Assembly: GCA_945883115.1 (NCBI GenBank)
Contig: CAMCXA010000001.1
Span: forward strand, 1-64,000
Length of the DNA: 64,000 nt
Source: Alsobacter soli
GTDB lineage: Bacteria; Pseudomonadota; Alphaproteobacteria; Rhizobiales; Beijerinckiaceae
Direction: 5' to 3'
Under the pieces are notes generated by a model. That model did no database searches and was not told the DNA's origin. It saw nothing but the letters and a program-made list of their open reading frames with translations. A program made the position numbers and the translations under genes. Of this stretch, positions 18,609 to 51,348 are shown in pieces; within the stretch, counting starts at the first letter, position 1, and each line of letters starts with the position of its first letter.

Positions 18609-19396
18609 GCGTTCTCGAAATCAAACATCTGGATAAAACCTATTCGGATGGCACCCGCGCTCTGTCCGATGTGTCGCTCGACGTCGGTGCAGGTGAAATT
18701 CTCGGCATTGTCGGCGGGTCAGGTTGTGGCAAAACAACCCTTTTGCGGCTTGTTGCCGGCCTCGATCTCCCGAGCGAGGGGTTTATCAGCGTCGGTGGCG
18801 AACGTATTTCCGGCCCGCATCCCGCTGTCGGCATTGTTTTTCAGGAGCCCCGTCTGCTGCCATGGCTGACCGTCGCGGACAATGTCGGCTTCGGGTTACA
18901 CCATCTGCCCGTAGCGGAGCGGATCAACCGCATCGCCAATGCACTGGAGCGTGTCGGCCTCGCCTCCTATGGAAAACGTTGGCCACGCGAACTTTCCGGT
19001 GGGCAGCAGCAACGTGTCGCCATTGCCCGCGCCTTTGTGGCGCGTCCGAAAGTCCTCTTGCTTGACGAGCCTTTTTCCGCGCTTGACGCCTTCACTCGAG
19101 CCAGTCTCCATGAGCATTTGCTCCTCTTATGGGAGCAGGACAAACCCACAATCGTCATGGTCACGCATGACGTGGAAGAATCCGTCACGCTTTCGGATCG
19201 GGTCGTCGTGATGAAGCCGCATCCCGGTCGCGTTTTCGAGACGATTTCAGTCACGCTGGAACGCCCGCGCGATCATCTCACGGCCCCGTTCGAGAAGGTA
19301 AAACGGCGTATTCATGCCACACTGGATCGGTCAATGCGGCCGGAAAACACGCCTCAAGCCCCACGAAAAAGCGACTCCGGCGCGCTTTGGTGGTAA
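18605..19396 (+). CDS. Sulfonate-type ABC transporter ATP-binding protein (SsuB-like)
   Basis: ATPase of 263 residues with Walker A GGSGCGKTT, signature ELSGGQQQRVAIARA, Walker B LLLDEPFSALD and switch histidine VTHDVEE. The Q-loop region is VFQEPRLLPWL, as in SsuB and TauB. I start it at ATG 18605, which overlaps the permease stop as ATGA; an upstream in-frame start at 18578 lies wholly inside the permease. It energises import of the ligand bound by the first gene product. Confidence 0.9.
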   Translation: MSVLEIKHLDKTYSDGTRALSDVSLDVGAGEILGIVGGSGCGKTTLLRLVAGLDLPSEGFISVGGERISGPHPAVGIVFQEPRLLPWLTVADNVGFGLHHLPVAERINRIANALERVGLASYGKRWPRELSGGQQQRVAIARAFVARPKVLLLDEPFSALDAFTRASLHEHLLLLWEQDKPTIVMVTHDVEESVTLSDRVVVMKPHPGRVFETISVTLERPRDHLTAPFEKVKRRIHATLDRSMRPENTPQAPRKSDSGALWW

Positions 19397-19428
19397 CCGG
19401 TACTCGCTTTCAACCCAAGGACACAACA

Positions 19429-19938
19429 ATGGACGCTACAACCCTTCGCTCACTTCAGGCCCCCCTCAAAGACACCTATAAAGCTACCCCGGAACAAGCG
19501 ATGATCACGCTCAAAGCCCGCGGCGAGCTTGATGAAGCCCATATTGCCTGCAAGGTCGAAACCGGTCGTGCCCTCGCAATTGCCGGCCTTCACCCTGCAA
19601 CCGGTGGCTCGGGCCTTGAACTCTGCTCGGGAGATATGTTGCTTGAAGCGCTCGTTGCGTGTGCGGGCGTCACCCTCAAAGCCGTCGCCACGGCCCTCGG
19701 TATCACACTCCGCAAGGGCATCGTCCGTGCCGAAGGTGATCTCGATTTCCGCGGCACATTGGGCGTTGATCGCGATGCACCGGTCGGCTTCCGCGCCATC
19801 CGTCTGAACTTCGATCTCGACACCGACGCAACCGACGAGCAAACCGCAACCCTGCTCAAGCTCACCGAGCGCTATTGCGTCGTATTCCAGACGATCAACA
19901 CAAAGCCTGAACTGAGTGTCGCGATCAATCGGGACTGA
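19429..19938 (+). CDS. OsmC family protein in sulfonate ABC operon
   Basis: A 169-residue protein of the OsmC/Ohr superfamily, whose studied members reduce organic hydroperoxides with a cysteine pair. The fold signature SGDMLLEALVACAGVTLKAVA is at about residues 65-85 and contains the usual central cysteine. The second, C-terminal cysteine lies in ERYCVVFQTI. The ATG at 19429 has AAGGA at 19417-19421, seven bases upstream; an in-frame GTG at 19387 would overlap the ATPase gene. It is only 32 bases from the ATPase, so it belongs to the operon. A protective or sulfur-related role beside the importer is inference. Confidence 0.82.
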   Translation: MDATTLRSLQAPLKDTYKATPEQAMITLKARGELDEAHIACKVETGRALAIAGLHPATGGSGLELCSGDMLLEALVACAGVTLKAVATALGITLRKGIVRAEGDLDFRGTLGVDRDAPVGFRAIRLNFDLDTDATDEQTATLLKLTERYCVVFQTINTKPELSVAINRD

Positions 19939-44003: not shown

Positions 44004-44355
44004 AACGCCTAAATCTCCTACACGTAGCGCCGCCGGCTTGTCCCGGCAGTCGGAAAATACGGCTCCAAAGCGGACCCGAAGAACCAACCTCATCGCGCCC
44101 GCATGATGCGGAACGCAGTTTTCAACGTCAAAAATCACAAACCCGCGCGAAGTGCAATCGTTTGGATGCTTAAATCTCGTGCGGCATAGTTTCCAACATT
44201 CAGATTAATGGATCGTTTCAACGGGTTGGTCCGGATTGGACAATCCCTCGATCACTCTGGGACACCATCGCATATTTTTGAGTCCCCGACGACTGGCACC
44301 TGAATTGAAAATTGGCTAGGGTGTGCAAATGGTCTTTGATCGGAGTGGATGTTTA
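44004..44355. promoter_or_regulatory. Divergent intergenic region between coxB and ialB-like gene
   Basis: About 350 bases that must hold the promoters of both the oxidase operon and the IalB-like gene. I see no clear -35/-10 pair. A 14-base dyad GGATTG-GA-CAATCC lies at 44233-44246. No open frame with support is present. Confidence 0.5.
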
Positions 44356-44859
44356 ATGCGTTTCTGGTTCAATTTGCGAGCCATAGGCTGCTTGATCGGG
44401 CTTTTGTGGATTACCCCCGCAGGTGCTGTCGGTGGAACTGTGAAGGCGACGTTCGGAGACTGGACGGTCAGATGCGAGCAACAACCGGGTGCGTCTGCCG
44501 AGCAATGTGCGCTCGTCCAGAATGTGAATGCCGAAGATCGCCCCGGTCTGTCGTTGGCGGTCTTGATCGTCAACGGAGCTGGCGGATCCGACCGGATTCT
44601 GCGGGTGATTCTGCCGCTTGGCGTTCTGATTCCATCAGGGCTAGGCCTGAGGATTGACGGGACCGATATCGGAAAAACGGGCTTTATTCGGTGTCTTCCG
44701 TCCGGGTGTATCGCCGAGGTCACGATGGGAGATGCATTGATCAACCAGTTCAAAGCAGGGCGAATGGCGCTTTTTATTGTTTTTCAAGGGCCCGATGACG
44801 GGATTGGCATTCCGATCACCTTGGCAAACTTTGCCGAGGGTCTTGCCGCACTACCGTGA
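44356..44859 (+). CDS. Invasion-associated locus B (IalB) family protein
   Basis: A 167-residue periplasmic protein with a signal peptide (MRFWFNLR, hydrophobic core, cut near PAGAVGG). The IalB hallmarks are ATFGDWTVRCE near the mature N-terminus, the cysteine in EQCALVQ and the pair in FIRCLPSGCIAEV. IalB was named in Bartonella, but the family is general in Hyphomicrobiales and its biochemical role is unclear. ATG 44356 has GGAG ten bases upstream; in-frame starts at 44323 and 44329 also exist. Confidence 0.88.
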   Translation: MRFWFNLRAIGCLIGLLWITPAGAVGGTVKATFGDWTVRCEQQPGASAEQCALVQNVNAEDRPGLSLAVLIVNGAGGSDRILRVILPLGVLIPSGLGLRIDGTDIGKTGFIRCLPSGCIAEVTMGDALINQFKAGRMALFIVFQGPDDGIGIPITLANFAEGLAALP

Positions 44860-45510: not shown

Positions 45511-45525
45511 CTAAATGTCTTACGA

Positions 45526-45725
45526 TCTCTGCGGAAGACGCTGTCGGGTGCATGATCGCACTCTGACAGGGCCGAAGGCGCAACCGCCCCGGAAACGCTC
45601 AGGCAAAAGGACCGCAGAGAGCTGACACTCTGGAAAGCAGATTGCTGATTTTCAGCAATCTCACCGAAGGGCGTAACCTCGGAGCCTCGGCTCACGCGGG
45701 AAATCTCTCAGGTACTCGGACAGAG
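45526..45725 (+). promoter_or_regulatory. Tandem glycine riboswitch
   Basis: Two glycine aptamers in tandem lie before gcvT. Aptamer 1 spans 45526-45620; its P1 helix pairs TCTCTGCGG (45526) with CCGCAGAGA (45612). It has the conserved CCGAAGGCGCAA and GCTCAGGCAAAAGGACCG segments. Aptamer 2 spans 45628-45725, with P1 CTCTG/CAGAG, ACCGAAGGGCGTAA and TCTCTCAGG. This is the classic cooperative architecture that turns on glycine cleavage when glycine is abundant. The 58 bases to the gcvT start would hold the expression platform; I see no terminator there, so translational control is possible. It fills most of the gap 45474-45783. Confidence 0.95.
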
Positions 45726-45783
45726 GGGGCGCCAGGCAGGCCATGTGGTCTGATGCTGGCGTTGCTCTGACCCGGGGAATCCG

Positions 45784-46929
45784 ATGACCGAAATCTTGTC
45801 TGACGCGCCAGTTCTTCACACAGCCCTCCATGATCGCCATGTCAGTCTCGGTGCCCGGATGGTGCCGTTTGCGGGCTATGATATGCCCGTCCAGTACCCG
45901 ACCGGTATTCTCGCAGAGCATCAATGGGCGCGAACCCATGCCGGACTGTTTGACGTCTCCCATATGGGGCAGGCCTTTCTGGTCGGTCCCGATCACGAGA
46001 CAACGGCGCGGGCACTGGAGGCCCTTGCCCCAGCTGATTTTCTGAATCTTCGCCCCGGTCAGCAGCGCTATTCGCAGTTTCTTACCCAAGATGGCGGCAT
46101 TATCGACGATTTTATGGTCACTCGGTCTGCGGATCCGGATGAGAATGGAACGCTGATGCTGGTCGCGAATGCCGGTCGAAAGGAGGTAGATTTCGCCCAT
46201 CTCGCAGCGCATCTGCCGCCATCAGTCAAATTGATGCTCGCGCCGCACCGCGGCTTGCTGGCTTTGCAGGGCCCGGAAGCCGCACGCGTTCTCTCGCGCC
46301 ATTGTCCCGCCGCATCAGACATGCCCTTCATGACGGCGATTTCCACAAGCTTCGATGCCATTCCCTGTCTCGTATCGCGCTCAGGCTATTCCGGCGAAGA
46401 CGGGTTTGAAATTTCTGTGCGAAATGACAAGATCGCGGTCGTGAATGAACGGCTTCTAGCCGCGCCCGAGGTAAAGCCAATCGGTCTGGGTGCCCGCGAC
46501 TCCCTTCGTCTCGAGGCAGGTCTATGCCTCTATGGCCACGATATCGACACGACGACATCTCCCGTCGAGGCCGGCCTGCAATGGTCGATCCAGAAACGGC
46601 GTCGCGAGGAAGGCGGATTTCCCGGTGATGCGCGCATTCAACGTGAGCTGTCAGATGGCCCATCCCGTCGGCGCGTTGGCATCCTCCCCGAAGGCCGGGC
46701 CCCGGCGCGGGAAGGAACCGTGATCACGGATCTCGCGGGTAACACCATCGGAACCATCACTTCGGGCGGCTTTGGCCCCACCCTCAATGGCCCTCTGGCC
46801 ATGGGCTATGTCGACAGCGCTCATGCCGCACTCGGCACCAAGGTCAATTTGGTTGTTCGTGGCAATCCCTTGCCAGCAATCATTTCTGCCATGCCCTTCG
46901 TTCCCACCCGTTATTTCCGTTCTGCTTGA
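45784..46929 (+). CDS. gcvT: Glycine cleavage system T protein (aminomethyltransferase)
   Basis: Transfers the aminomethyl carbon from lipoyl-GcvH to tetrahydrofolate. It has 381 residues. Folate-binding features are the segments FDVSHMGQ (about residues 57-64), GYSGEDGFEI and GARDSLRLEAGLCLYGHDI, which contains the catalytic aspartate region. First gene after the glycine riboswitch; gcvH follows 16 bases later. Confidence 0.96.
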   Translation: MTEILSDAPVLHTALHDRHVSLGARMVPFAGYDMPVQYPTGILAEHQWARTHAGLFDVSHMGQAFLVGPDHETTARALEALAPADFLNLRPGQQRYSQFLTQDGGIIDDFMVTRSADPDENGTLMLVANAGRKEVDFAHLAAHLPPSVKLMLAPHRGLLALQGPEAARVLSRHCPAASDMPFMTAISTSFDAIPCLVSRSGYSGEDGFEISVRNDKIAVVNERLLAAPEVKPIGLGARDSLRLEAGLCLYGHDIDTTTSPVEAGLQWSIQKRRREEGGFPGDARIQRELSDGPSRRRVGILPEGRAPAREGTVITDLAGNTIGTITSGGFGPTLNGPLAMGYVDSAHAALGTKVNLVVRGNPLPAIISAMPFVPTRYFRSA

Positions 46930-46945: not shown

Positions 46946-47320
46946 ATGTCCGAGACCCGTTACTCAAAAGATCATGAATATATCCGCGTCGAGGGAGATG
47001 TCGGTGTTGTCGGCATTTCCGATTATGCCCAGAGCCAGCTTGGCGATGTGGTCTTTGTTGAATTACCAGCCACCGGCAAGGCCTTGTCCAAAGGCGCCGA
47101 GGCAGCCGTCGTCGAAAGCGTCAAGGCGGCAAGCGAAGTCTATGCTCCCGTGTCGGGCGAGGTCACTGCCGTCAATTCGGCACTCGAGAAAGCCCCCGGT
47201 ACGATCAATGAAGATCCGCAGGGCGAAGGCTGGTTCATGAAAATCAAGCTCTCCAACCCGTCCGAACTCGGCGATCTGATGAGCGAGGCCGATTACAAGA
47301 CCTATCTCGCGTCACTCTAG
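46946..47320 (+). CDS. gcvH: Glycine cleavage system H protein
   Basis: Lipoyl carrier of the glycine cleavage complex, 124 residues. The lipoylated lysine is in VVESVKAASEVYAPVSG at about residue 64. The ATG at 46946 follows GAGGAG (46935-46940). The frame is open much further upstream inside gcvT, which is not used. Confidence 0.97.
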   Translation: MSETRYSKDHEYIRVEGDVGVVGISDYAQSQLGDVVFVELPATGKALSKGAEAAVVESVKAASEVYAPVSGEVTAVNSALEKAPGTINEDPQGEGWFMKIKLSNPSELGDLMSEADYKTYLASL

Positions 47321-47331
47321 AGGAGATTGCG

Positions 47332-47811
47332 ATGGCGGATATCTATTCGGCAATGATTTCATGGTCCCGGGGCGAGCAGGATTTTCCGGGAAACCGCTAT
47401 AGCCGACGTCATGAATGGCGGTTCGACGGAGGTGTGGTTGTGCCCGCCTCGTCGTCGCCGCTTGTTGTGCCGGTTCCCTTATCCGCTTCGGATGCAGTCG
47501 ACCCCGAAGAGGCGTTCGTCGCCTCGCTCGCAAGTTGTCACATGCTGTTTTTTCTGAGTTTTGCAGCGAAAGCGGGCCTGATTATCGATACTTACACCGA
47601 TAATGCCATTGGCGAGATGGGCAAGAATGCCGTGGGTAAGCACTATGTCGCCCGCGTTGTTTTGCGCCCGGAATTGACGCTTAGCGGTTCGAAAAGACCG
47701 ACATCGGAAGAAATCGAGGCCTTGCATCATCGCGCCCATGACTTCTGCTTCATCGCCAATTCCGTTCTTTCCGAAATTGTGATCGAGCCACCGCCTCCCG
47801 TCTTCGTTTAA
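47332..47811 (+). CDS. OsmC family protein in glycine cleavage operon
   Basis: A 159-residue OsmC-superfamily protein between gcvH and gcvPA. The fold motif [23 protein letters not shown] is at about residues 57-79, with the usual central cysteine, and the second cysteine lies in [11 protein letters not shown]. This cysteine pair suggests peroxide reduction; the nearest relatives annotate as OsmC or Ohr-like. GAGGAG stands right before its ATG and it is 11 bases from gcvH, so it is part of the operon and under the glycine riboswitch. Its link to glycine cleavage is unknown. Confidence 0.85.
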
Positions 47812-47828: not shown

Positions 47829-49175
47829 ATGCGCTATCTTCCACTTTCCGATACTGATCGCACCGATATGCTCGCCAAAATCGGCGTCAAGCATATTGAC
47901 GAGCTCTTCGCTGATATCCCGGCCGACAAACTCCAGCATCATCTGCCGCAATTGCCCGTTCACAAGGGCGAACTCGAGGTCGAACGGCTTCTGGGCCGCA
48001 TGGCGGCGCGCAATGTTCCGGCGTCAACAGTTCCTTTTTTCGTTGGTGCCGGTGCCTATAAACACCATGTTCCCTCAACGGTGGATCATCTGATCCAGCG
48101 GTCGGAATTTTTGACGAGTTACACGCCCTACCAGCCTGAAATAGCCCAGGGAACCTTGCAATATCTCTTCGAATTCCAGACGCAGGTTGCAGCCCTCACC
48201 GGAATGGAAGTAGCGAACGCGTCCATGTATGACGGCTCGACAGCCTGTGGCGAGGCGGTTCTGATGGCCCATCGTGTCACCAAGCGGAACAAGGCGATCT
48301 TGTCGGGCGGGCTTCATCCCCACTACGCCGAAGTCGTCCGGACCTTGTCGCGCATGGCTGGCGACAAGGTTGAAACACTCCCGCCCGATTTGAAAGCATC
48401 GGAAAATCTACTCGACAAAATTGACGATACTGTTTCCTGTGTCGTGATCCAGACGCCTGATTTCTTCGGCAATTTACGCGATTTACGGGCGATTGCCGAG
48501 AAATGCCATGCGAATGGCGCCTTGCTGATCGCCGTCTTCACAGAAATCATGTCGCTCGGCTTGATCACCCCCCCGGGCGAGATGGGAGCCGATATCGTCG
48601 TGGGTGAAGGGCAATCCATCGGCAACGGCCTCATCTATGGCGGCCCCTATGTCGGTCTGTTCACAACCAAATCAAAATATATCCGGCAAATGCCCGGCAG
48701 ATTATGCGGGCAGACCGTCGACGCCGATGGTAATCGCGGCTTTGTGCTGACCCTCTCGACCCGCGAACAGCACATCAGGCGCGACAAGGCCACCTCGAAT
48801 ATCTGCACCAATTCCGGGCTCTGTACGCTGGCCTTCACAATCCACATGTCCTTGCTCGGCCAGACCGGTTTGAAGCGCGTTGCCGAAATCAACCACGCCA
48901 ACGCCGTTCACCTCGCTGATCTGCTTTCCGGCCTCAAGGGCATCTCCGTTCTCAATGACAGTTTCTTCAACGAATTTACGGTCCGGCTGCCGGGTAATGC
49001 CGCCGATACCGTTGAGCGATTGGCAGCACACAGCGTCATGGCGGGTGTTCCCGTGTCGCGGCTCTTGCCCGGCTCGGGTCTCGATGACCTGCTGATCATC
49101 GCCAATACGGAAGTGAATACGGATGAGGACCGCGCTGCACTCGTCAGCGGATTGAAGGAGATTTTCTCATGCTGA
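47829..49175 (+). CDS. gcvPA: Glycine dehydrogenase (decarboxylating) subunit 1
   Basis: The N-terminal half of P protein, encoded separately, 448 residues. It opens with [18 protein letters not shown] and contains [34 protein letters not shown] and [12 protein letters not shown], as in other GcvPA proteins. It forms a heterotetramer with GcvPB and lacks the PLP lysine itself. Its end overlaps gcvPB by seven bases. Confidence 0.97.
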
Positions 49176-50746
49176 ATCGTCAGGGACGTCCCACAACACC
49201 CGGCACCAGTGACAGTGCCGCGCCCCACACCTTCACCGGTAACCGCGCACTGGATCAGACAGAGCCGCTCCTTTTCGAAGTCGGCCGATTGGAGACCACC
49301 GGTGTCGATTATGAAGCGCCGAAAAAGGTCAAAGCACGTCTGGGCGGATTGGCGCGAAAAGGTGAGATCGGCCTTCCGGGCCTCTCTGAGCCGGAAGCGA
49401 TGCGCCATTATGTCAGGCTGAGCCAGAAGAATTACGGCATTGATACCGGCCTTTTTCCGCTTGGTTCCTGCACGATGAAGCACAATCCCCGCCTTAACGA
49501 GCGCATGGCGCGCCTGCCCGGCTTTGGTGACGTGCATCCGCTCCAGCCTGTCTCGACCGTGCAAGGCGCCCTCGAACTCATGCATACGCTTGCCCATTGG
49601 CTCACTGAGTTGACGGGCATGGACGCGGTGGCCCTATCCCCCAAAGCGGGTGCGCATGGCGAATTATGCGGCATGATGGCGATCAAAGCCGCCATTGAAG
49701 CAAAAGGCGAAGCCGAGACCCGCCGGATTGTCCTTGTCCCGGACTCGGCCCATGGCACCAACCCCGCAACCGCTGCCTTGCTGCAATTCGAGGTGCGCCC
49801 CGTTCCGGTCCGCGAAGACGGCACCGTTGATCCCGAGTCAGTCAAAGCCTTGCTCGGGCCGGATGTTGCGGCGATCATGCTCACAAATCCCAATACGTGC
49901 GGGCTGTTCGAGAAGGATATCGTCGCCATCGCCGACGCAATGCACGATGCAGGGGCCTATTTCTACTGCGACGGGGCAAATTACAACGCCATTGTAGGCA
50001 AGGCGCGCCCGGGCGATCTCGGTGTCGACGCCATGCATATCAATCTGCACAAGACATTCTCGACGCCCCATGGCGGTGGTGGCCCGGGTTCCGGCCCCGT
50101 CGTTCTCTCCGAACGCCTGGCACCTTTTGCACCGGTTCCGTTCGTCCGTCATACCGATCAAGGTTTTGAACTTGTCGAAGATACGCATCAGGCAGAAAAA
50201 CATGGTGCGCACTCGTTCGGCCGGATCACTGCCTTTCAAGGCCAGATGGGCATGTTCGTCCGGGCTTTGTCCTACATGTTATCGCACGGCGCGGACGGCG
50301 TCAGGCAAGCCTCTGAGGATGCTGTTCTGAATGCCAATTATATCCGCGCGGGACTTGCCGATCTGATGTCACTTCCCTTCGGCAACAAGCCCTGCATGCA
50401 TGAAGTCTTGTTCGATGACCATTGGCTCAAGGACACAGGTGTCTCCACGCTCGATTTTGCCAAGGCGATGATCGACGAGGGATACCACCCGATGACCGTC
50501 TACTTCCCGCTTGTTGTGCATGGCGCGATGCTGATTGAGCCCACGGAAAGCGAAAGCCGCGCATCGCTCGATCTTTTCATTGCAACCTTGCGCGATCTCG
50601 CAATGGCAGCCAAGCGTGGTGATAAGGAGCGCTTTACGGGCGCGCCTTATTTCGCGCCCGTTCGTAGGCTCGATGAAACGCGAGCTGCGCGGAATCCCGT
50701 TTTGAAGTGGATGCCACCTGAACCCATTTCTGAGGCTGCAGAGTAA
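49169..50746 (+). CDS. gcvPB: Glycine dehydrogenase (decarboxylating) subunit 2
   Basis: The PLP-carrying half of P protein, 525 residues. The PLP lysine is in [20 protein letters not shown] at about residue 295. [10 protein letters not shown] and [19 protein letters not shown] are further family motifs. Together with GcvPA it decarboxylates glycine and passes the aminomethyl group to GcvH. An N-terminal stretch of about 25 residues precedes the conserved part. A strong terminator follows. Confidence 0.97.
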
Positions 50747-50749
50747 ATA

Positions 50750-50779
50750 AAAAGGGCCGGTCAAACCGGCCCTTTTCAT
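50750..50779. terminator. Bidirectional intrinsic terminator after gcvPB
   Basis: AAAAGGGCCGGT (50750-50761) pairs perfectly with ACCGGCCCTTTT (50765-50776) around a CAA loop, so it has A and T runs on both sides. It serves gcvPB on the plus strand and the cytochrome c gene on the minus strand. Confidence 0.9.
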
Positions 50780-50799
50780 ATCTTGATATTCGGTTCGCG

Positions 50800-51348
50800 T
50801 TATTGCGGCAGCGGTGCCGGCGTATCTGCCAAAGACCTGAGATAGGCAACCAGATCCGCACGCTTCGCTGCATCTGCAAGACCCGCATAGGCCATGGCCG
50901 TGCCCGGCATGTAAGCCTTCGGGTTGGCAATGAAGCCGTCAAGCTCCGCATAACCCCATTTCTCGCCTTTCGCCGCACGCTCTTTCAGAGCAGCTGAATA
51001 ATTGAAGCCCGCAACCGCACCCTTCGCACGGTCCACGATTCCATACATCGCCGGCCCAACCTTGTTCGGTTGGCCCTTTTCGAAATTGTGGCAGGCGAGA
51101 CAGGCCTTTACACCAGCGGCACCCTTTGCAGGGTCCGCAGAAGCAAGCCTCACGGCAATTGGTTCGACGACAGGTGCGGCAGCACCGGCACTCGCCGCTG
51201 GGGCCTCGGAGGCACCCGGCAATTCATAGCCAGCGACCTCGACCTTTGGCGGCGCGAAGATCATGTCGGCCACAATGCCTATACCCATCACGAAAAGAAG
51301 GATGCCAAGCACGGCACCGGCGATTTTGTTAAACTCAAAAGAATCCAT
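50800..51348 (-). CDS. Membrane-anchored cytochrome c (CycM-like)
   Basis: A 182-residue class I cytochrome c with an uncleaved N-terminal membrane anchor (about residues 8-31), an Ala/Pro-rich linker and a heme domain. The heme site is ACLACHNFEKG (CxxCH, about residue 84), and the methionine ligand is in YMPGTAMAYAG. CycM-type proteins carry electrons from the bc1 complex to aa3 oxidase, which fits the oxidase genes in this window. It is divergent from kdsB. Confidence 0.92.
   Translation of the reverse strand: MDSFEFNKIAGAVLGILLFVMGIGIVADMIFAPPKVEVAGYELPGASEAPAASAGAAAPVVEPIAVRLASADPAKGAAGVKACLACHNFEKGQPNKVGPAMYGIVDRAKGAVAGFNYSAALKERAAKGEKWGYAELDGFIANPKAYMPGTAMAYAGLADAAKRADLVAYLRSLADTPAPLPQ

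What the first reader, a model, noticed from the sequence alone, without database searches (positions are those of the whole stretch)
47332..47811. OsmC-family gene inside a glycine-riboswitch-controlled gcv operon
An OsmC gene with the usual two cysteines lies between gcvH and gcvPA, with short spacers and its own Shine-Dalgarno sequence, under one promoter and riboswitch. Seen: position, spacing, motifs. Known: OsmC/Ohr proteins reduce organic hydroperoxides. Inference: it may protect the lipoyl groups or the folate and PLP chemistry of the cleavage complex from oxidation, or handle a thiol by-product.
Basis: partly seen in the sequence, partly recalled or inferred. Interest (0 to 1): 0.55.

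Follow-up and report, generated by a model that had tools for sequence, protein, structure and literature searches.

The report
Peroxidase gene built into glycine-cleavage operon
A bacterial gene for an OsmC-type peroxide-destroying enzyme sits right behind the gene for the lipoyl-carrying H protein of the glycine cleavage system, under the same glycine-sensing RNA switch, and this order recurs in many families of one bacterial order, which suggests that glycine breakdown directly feeds peroxide removal.

Summary
A 159-aa OsmC-family gene (47332-47811) lies between gcvH and gcvPA in a gcvT-gcvH-osmC-gcvPA-gcvPB operon behind a tandem glycine riboswitch. It is not a strain oddity: in a 397-genome draw from the same order, 62 genomes besides the window's carry a homologue; 61 were examined and 46 show this order; with one further relative, 47 genomes in 11 families. 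It is patchy: a homologue in 0 of 11 congeners, linkage in 0 of 38 homologue-bearing same-class genomes outside the order. The protein is VCA0330-like (PDB 2d7v), with invariant cysteines and Glu59/60.

Best explanation: a lipoyl-dependent hydroperoxide reductase recharged by the dihydrolipoyl arm of GcvH. [quoted passage not shown] Lipoyl is then the reductant rather than the thing protected. Activity and GcvH contact are inferred, not shown. The listings of ten searches of the held library showed no description of this bacterial operon.

The parts
45522..45624 (+). glycine riboswitch aptamer 1 (RF00504)
   Evidence: cmscan 59.5 bits, gathering 32
45626..45727 (+). glycine riboswitch aptamer 2 (RF00504)
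   Evidence: cmscan 38.5 bits, gathering 32
45784..46929 (+). gcvT, aminomethyltransferase
   Evidence: NF010093 512.8 bits, cut-off 459
46946..47320 (+). gcvH, lipoyl carrier H protein (SVKA motif, K60 presumed lipoyl site, recalled)
   Evidence: TIGR00527 147.7 bits, cut-off 115.85; motif position
47321..47325 (+). Shine-Dalgarno-like AGGAG of osmC, 6 nt before the ATG
   Evidence: sequence
47332..47811 (+). osmC-family gene, VCA0330-like subfamily; C69 and C139 presumed peroxidatic and resolving cysteines
   Evidence: PF02566 48.0 bits, cut-off 27.5; 2d7v E 4.4e-53; VIA Z 20.6, rmsd 1.7 over 153 residues
47829..49175 (+). gcvPA, glycine dehydrogenase subunit 1
   Evidence: NF001696 593.6 bits, cut-off 364
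49169..50746 (+). gcvPB, glycine dehydrogenase subunit 2 (overlaps gcvPA by 7 nt)
   Evidence: NF003346 682.5 bits, cut-off 441
50750..50776 (+). probable intrinsic terminator: hairpin whose 3' arm ends in four T
   Evidence: sequence; 50736-50800 folded (-21.4 kcal/mol); not among the hits of the stricter scan

Best explanation
The gene encodes a two-cysteine, lipoyl-dependent hydroperoxide reductase that works together with GcvH. Proposed cycle: C69 reduces a hydroperoxide and becomes a sulfenic acid; C139 resolves it to an intramolecular disulfide; the dihydrolipoyl arm of GcvH reduces that disulfide and is left as lipoyl-GcvH. GcvH is re-reduced either by glycine cleavage itself (P and T proteins) or by dihydrolipoamide dehydrogenase running from NADH. 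The glycine riboswitch makes the peroxidase together with the complex when glycine is plentiful. SHOWN here: gene order, riboswitch, conservation and patchiness, conserved residues, predicted fold. PUBLISHED for relatives: peroxidase chemistry, reduction by lipoylated proteins, and the H- and L-protein route in Trichomonas. INFERRED: that this protein has the activity and that its donor in the cell is GcvH.
For: Order gcvT-gcvH-osmC-gcvPA in 47 of 60 fetched loci, 11 families, gcvPB in view in 45 of the 47; also in 5 of the 80 best matches kept from a capped named-genome scan, all titled Hyphomicrobiales, Rhizobiales, Microvirga or Bauldia (L090 is probably the same contig as L159). osmC directly follows gcvH: median gap 4 nt, range -4 to 74, six 4-nt overlaps, n = 52 loci, one probable duplicate. 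Glycine riboswitch in 23 of 24 osmC-bearing loci scanned; in the 24th (L076) the contig begins about 140 nt before the gcvT match. C69, C139, E59, E60, H27, H70, H132, H136 invariant in 140 of 140 sequences, R25 in 139. Unlinked homologues have no recurrent neighbour: the commonest neighbour family is in 4 of 87 loci, by simple ORF calling. OsmC and GcvPA distances over 53 linked operons correlate, r 0.74, like gcvH and gcvPA, 0.69. Passages: Ohr/OsmC disulfides are reduced by lipoylated proteins; Trichomonas OsmC receives electrons from lipoate via GDC L and H proteins. Fold shared with Ohr crystals titled as interacting with dihydrolipoamide, 6ebg and 6ebd. The genome has two genes over the lipoamide dehydrogenase cut-off.
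Against: I found no experiment on this subfamily; 2d7v is titled 'unknown function'. Relatives use other lipoyl systems (PDH, SucB, AhpD), so GcvH need not be the donor. The linkage is missing in 15 of the 61 other genomes of the order whose homologue was examined, no congener has the gene (0 of 11), and 0 of 38 homologue-bearing genomes outside the order are linked: glycine cleavage does not need it. Shared gene order partly reflects shared ancestry. No sharp residue marks the linked proteins, and at positions 76 and 79 the window's protein looks like the unlinked type; one tree puts it beside unlinked proteins. A Shine-Dalgarno-like motif by a loose pattern is found before osmC in only 35 of 52 linked loci. 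No complex model was made.
Confidence: 0.6

Rival explanations
1. A general organic-hydroperoxide reductase, reduced by any lipoylated protein of the cell (E2 subunits and GcvH alike); its place in the gcv operon only sets its expression.
For: Xylella Ohr works with PDH and SucB (PMC8945050 passage). Homologues elsewhere are mostly not linked to gcvH: 0 of 38 same-class genomes outside the order, 75 of 80 kept loci in the named collection unlinked. The window genome also has a true Ohr on contig 30.
Against: The only recurrent genomic context I saw is directly behind gcvH. Linked genomes often keep a true Ohr too: 27 of 47, against 4 of 20 hand-picked genomes of the order without a homologue, so it is not a plain Ohr substitute; this does not separate the two readings.
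Confidence: 0.22
2. It protects or repairs the complex: it removes peroxides near the H protein so that lipoyl thiols, the T protein or PLP are not oxidised, without GcvH being its dedicated donor.
For: Same position and co-regulation; peroxidase family.
Against: In the passages read the donors of the family are lipoyl thiols themselves, so protection and donation are hard to separate; the gcv operons of the 10 congeners fetched do without the gene.
Confidence: 0.1
3. It is not mainly a peroxidase: it acts on a sulfur or one-carbon by-product of the T-protein reaction.
For: A different, distant OsmC group sits directly behind a DmdA/GcvT-family gene in L236, L242 and L251, and Pelagibacter osmC lies by bhmT and ordL, downstream of a SAM riboswitch (PMC5069961 passages): one-carbon or methyl-transfer surroundings in each case.
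Against: Both cysteines, an Arg and the Glu of the peroxidases are conserved; I know of no such by-product.
Confidence: 0.05
4. Hitch-hiker: an insertion with no functional tie to glycine cleavage.
For: No homologue in the 11 congeners; gcvH and gcvPA are direct neighbours in the 10 fetched.
Against: Same slot and tight spacing behind gcvH in 47 genomes of 11 families, with the catalytic residues intact.
Confidence: 0.03

Closest known systems
Trichomonas vaginalis hydrogenosomal OsmC with the incomplete glycine decarboxylase complex, Nyvltova et al. 2016, PMID 26794804 (paper not held; known from one passage of the review PMC7946386, and its title in reference lists)
   Same: OsmC-family peroxidase said to be fed by lipoate through GDC L and H proteins
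   Different: Eukaryotic organelle with an incomplete complex; here a bacterial operon with gcvT, gcvH, gcvPA and gcvPB, the gene encoded next to gcvH behind a glycine riboswitch. Sequence relation of the two OsmC proteins not tested.
Ohr of Xylella fastidiosa, lipoyl-dependent peroxidase (Cussiol et al. 2010, original not held; described in passages of PMC5962072 and PMC8945050)
   Same: Fold, two cysteines, a Glu ten residues before the peroxidatic Cys, lipoyl proteins as donor (inferred for ours)
   Different: 16% identity to 1zb9 in the structural alignment; described donors are PDH and SucB; no TIGR03561 match for ours
VCA0330 of Vibrio cholerae (PDB 2d7v), titled as of unknown function
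   Same: 54% identity, same fold over 153 residues; the cysteines, Arg and Glu are shared (alignment)
   Different: No function given; gene neighbourhood not examined here
Pelagibacter ubique osmC-bhmT-ordL region with SAM-V riboswitches (PMC5069961, passages)
   Same: An alphaproteobacterial osmC among one-carbon genes and behind a metabolite riboswitch
   Different: Other pathway, other riboswitch; no GcvH named there

Membership tests
OsmC/Ohr superfamily (Pfam PF02566) | profile score above the curated cut-off | tested here: met
   48.0 bits against 27.5
OsmC/Ohr superfamily (Pfam PF02566) | two conserved cysteines | tested here: met
   C69 and C139 in 140 of 140 aligned sequences, some of them near-duplicates
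OsmC/Ohr superfamily (Pfam PF02566) | catalytic Arg and Glu close to the peroxidatic Cys | tested here: inconclusive
   E59 and E60 invariant, E59 ten residues before C69; R25 conserved in 139 of 140; distances not measured, and the active site lies at a dimer interface that was not modelled
OsmC/Ohr superfamily (Pfam PF02566) | OsmC/Ohr fold | tested here: met
   AlphaFold2 monomer, best of five models mean pLDDT 90.6, the others 77.5-84.2; VIA Z 14.5 to E. coli OsmC 1nye_F (rmsd 2.8, 136 residues), 13.4 to P. aeruginosa Ohr 1n2f_A (rmsd 2.3, 132 residues)
Ohr proper (TIGR03561) | NCBIfam model | tested here: not met
   No match at E up to 0.001
OsmC proper (TIGR03562) | NCBIfam model | tested here: not met
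   No match at E up to 0.001; only TIGR03563 at 20.1 bits against a cut-off of 166.15
YhfA group | lacks the Arg and Glu near the peroxidatic Cys (PMC8945050 passage) | tested here: inconclusive
   Glu59/60 invariant and R25 nearly so, which speaks against YhfA, but residue positions in space were not measured
VCA0330-like subfamily (2d7v) | full-length similarity | tested here: met
   E 4.4e-53; 54% identity, rmsd 1.7 over 153 residues, Z 20.6
lipoyl-dependent peroxidases | hydroperoxide reduction with lipoylated protein plus Lpd | not testable with these tools
   Needs an enzyme assay
glycine cleavage operon under a glycine riboswitch | RF00504 upstream of gcvT, with gcvT, gcvH, gcvPA and gcvPB | tested here: met

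The most novel reading that the evidence does not exclude
In these bacteria peroxide is a terminal electron acceptor of glycine cleavage: OsmC re-oxidises dihydrolipoyl-GcvH directly, so glycine oxidation by P, T and H runs without the L protein and NAD+ and burns hydroperoxides as it goes, a glycine-fuelled peroxidase switched on by the glycine riboswitch.
Probability: 0.25. Interest if true: 0.7.

Novelty: new variant of a known kind. Interest (0 to 1): 0.45.

Why it matters
Which lipoyl protein feeds a given bacterial OsmC-type peroxidase is rarely known (my reading of the passages). A conserved gcvH-osmC pair behind a glycine riboswitch names one candidate donor and makes the question testable with three purified proteins (GcvH, Lpd, OsmC). 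It would tie one-carbon metabolism to peroxide defence in a bacterial order, and give a function to a subfamily whose one close solved structure, 2d7v, was released in 2006 under the title 'unknown function'.

Tried and rejected
Gene unique to this strain: rejected at the level of the order, though no congener has it (0 of 11). Own promoter or terminator: none seen by a weak scan. Substitute for Ohr: rejected, since the window genome and 27 of 47 linked genomes have a true Ohr, against 4 of 20 genomes without a homologue that I picked by hand (related genomes are not independent). Riboswitch brought in with osmC: rejected, since 12 of 12 osmC-less operons scanned (9 same genus, 3 same family) have it too.

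Number of origins: not resolved. A quick tree of 142 OsmC rows needs 6 changes of linkage and puts the window beside unlinked proteins. The AU test does not reject one linked clade (p 0.19; p 0.09 without the window; 135 rows, 7 long-branch or duplicate rows dropped). A careful 53-row tree puts the window among linked proteins; p 0.68 for the window with 10 linked kin, p 0.45 for the rival grouping. In the GcvPA tree (79 rows) osmC presence needs 9 changes.

Specificity residues in OsmC and GcvH (e.g. position 12, W in 80% of osmC-bearing and Y in 96% of osmC-less operons) are confounded by ancestry and were not used. Neighbours of unlinked homologues gave no recurrent partner. No GcvH-OsmC complex model was attempted. 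Not examined: the region of G378, the second hit of G058, the further hits of G031 beyond L014 and L015, and the second hit of G551.

Full report
WHAT IS THERE. The window holds a glycine cleavage operon: gcvT (45784-46929), gcvH (46946-47320), an OsmC-family gene (47332-47811), gcvPA (47829-49175) and gcvPB (49169-50746), each gcv gene above a curated NCBIfam cut-off. Two glycine riboswitch aptamers stand in tandem before gcvT. osmC starts 11 nt after the gcvH stop, with AGGAG 6 nt before its ATG. A strong hairpin ending in four T follows gcvPB. The consensus scan gives no sign of a separate unit for osmC, though such scans are weak.

WHAT THE PROTEIN IS. It passes Pfam OsmC (48.0 bits, cut-off 27.5) but no NCBIfam cut-off. 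Its one sequence match in the PDB at E up to 0.001 is VCA0330 of Vibrio cholerae, 2d7v, titled as of unknown function. An AlphaFold2 monomer from 40 sequences has mean pLDDT 90.6 in the best of five models. It matches 2d7v (Z 20.6, rmsd 1.7, 153 residues) and, further off, E. coli OsmC (1nye_F, Z 14.5) and several Ohr enzymes (Z about 13), among them crystals titled as interacting with dihydrolipoamide (6ebg, 6ebd). In 140 homologues (53 beside gcv genes, 87 not; some near-duplicates), C69, C139, E59, E60, H27, H70, H132 and H136 never vary and R25 varies once. E59 stands ten residues before C69, the spacing of Glu51 and Cys61 in Xylella Ohr (PMC5962072 passages). Whether R25 takes the place of the catalytic Arg was not measured.

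HOW WIDESPREAD. Among 60 relatives (own included), 9 have a homologue at E up to 0.001, and 0 of the 11 congeners. In the 10 congeners whose gcvH locus was fetched, gcvPA follows gcvH directly. In a draw of 397 genomes of the order (own included), 63 (own included) have a homologue at E up to 1e-20. I fetched 60 regions: 59 of the 62 other genomes of that list, and G031. Of these 60 loci, 47 show gcvT-gcvH-osmC-gcvPA, 45 of them with gcvPB in view, in 11 families; 13 do not. Two more of the 62, fetched later, are unlinked; G378 was not examined. So 46 of 61 examined other genomes are linked; with the window at least 47 of the 397 have the arrangement. Of 38 homologue-bearing same-class genomes outside the order, 0 have gcvH or gcvPA within about 5 kb, some on short contigs. 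L090 of that set is probably the same contig as L159. In 52 linked loci the gcvH-osmC gap has a median of 4 nt (range -4 to 74; start codons chosen by a simple rule), while the osmC-gcvPA gap exceeds 150 nt in 7.

EVOLUTION. OsmC distances follow GcvPA distances across 53 linked operons (r 0.74, Mantel p 0.001; gcvH-gcvPA 0.69), so in its carriers osmC behaves like an ordinary operon member; any vertically inherited gene would show some such correlation. Whether it entered the operon once and was lost often, or entered more than once, is not resolved: trees disagree on the window's place and AU tests reject neither view.

RIBOSWITCH. 23 of 24 linked loci scanned have a glycine riboswitch; the exception (L076) is cut off by its contig end. 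12 of 12 osmC-less operons of close relatives have it as well. The switch belongs to the operon, and osmC came under it.

MECHANISM. From passages read: Ohr/OsmC enzymes form an intramolecular disulfide that thioredoxin and glutathione systems do not reduce and that lipoylated proteins do; in Corynebacterium glutamicum AhpD is the preferred route (PMC8945050; for Ohr also PMC5962072). [quoted passage not shown] the original, PMID 26794804, is not held). GcvH is the lipoyl carrier encoded next door here. The simplest reading is that this OsmC uses dihydrolipoyl-GcvH as reductant, with electrons from glycine itself or from NADH through Lpd, of which the genome has two genes over the cut-off. The activity and the partner are inferred.

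RIVALS. A general lipoyl peroxidase placed here only for its expression is the strongest rival, because relatives use several lipoyl systems and the homologues I examined outside the order stand alone. A true Ohr coexists in the window genome and in 27 of 47 linked genomes, against 4 of 20 hand-picked genomes of the order without a homologue, so it is not a plain replacement. A non-peroxidase role has only the hint that distant OsmC relatives also sit in one-carbon surroundings.

NOVELTY. Ten searches of the held full-text library joined OsmC or Ohr with gcvH, gcvT, glycine cleavage, glycine decarboxylase, glycine riboswitch, lipoyl, dmdA and related terms. I saw listings (several capped: 20 of 95, 5 of 603, 10 of 15) and passages of seven papers; none described this bacterial arrangement. 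Subscription papers are mostly outside that library. The biochemical idea is known from Trichomonas; the operon and its glycine control I could not find described. I rate it a new variant of a known kind.

Noticed in passing
L242:3872-5441, L251:4977-6601, L236:3811-5435: A distant OsmC group lies directly behind a GcvT-family gene that matches the DMSP demethylase model (L242 535.7 bits over the cut-off 410; L251 374.4 and L236 364.1 below it), followed in L242 and L251 by an enoyl-CoA hydratase gene and in L251 by an acyl-CoA synthetase gene: perhaps an OsmC partner in DMSP or related demethylation.
   Followed up: partly
window 19387-19938 (+): A second OsmC-superfamily gene in the window, weakly like the OsmC-related (seleno)protein model (28.9 bits, cut-off 95), beside a gene that reads like an ABC transporter ATPase.
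   Followed up: partly
L210:2646-3227: In relative G031 the RNase P RNA gene lies about 110 nt before the glycine riboswitch of the osmC-bearing gcv operon.
   Followed up: no
L178, L183, L189, L190, L192, L197, L200: In seven linked operons the osmC-gcvPA gap is 161 to 557 nt instead of about 15; six of these loci are in one genus (g132). What fills the gap was not looked at.
   Followed up: no
window 47332-47811 and homologues: Four histidines (H27, H70, H132, H136) are invariant in all 140 sequences of this OsmC subfamily; their role, perhaps at the active site or a metal site, is unexplained.
   Followed up: no
window 44323-44859 (+): IalB-family (PF06776) gene upstream of the operon, 110.3 bits, cut-off 22.1.
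   Followed up: no
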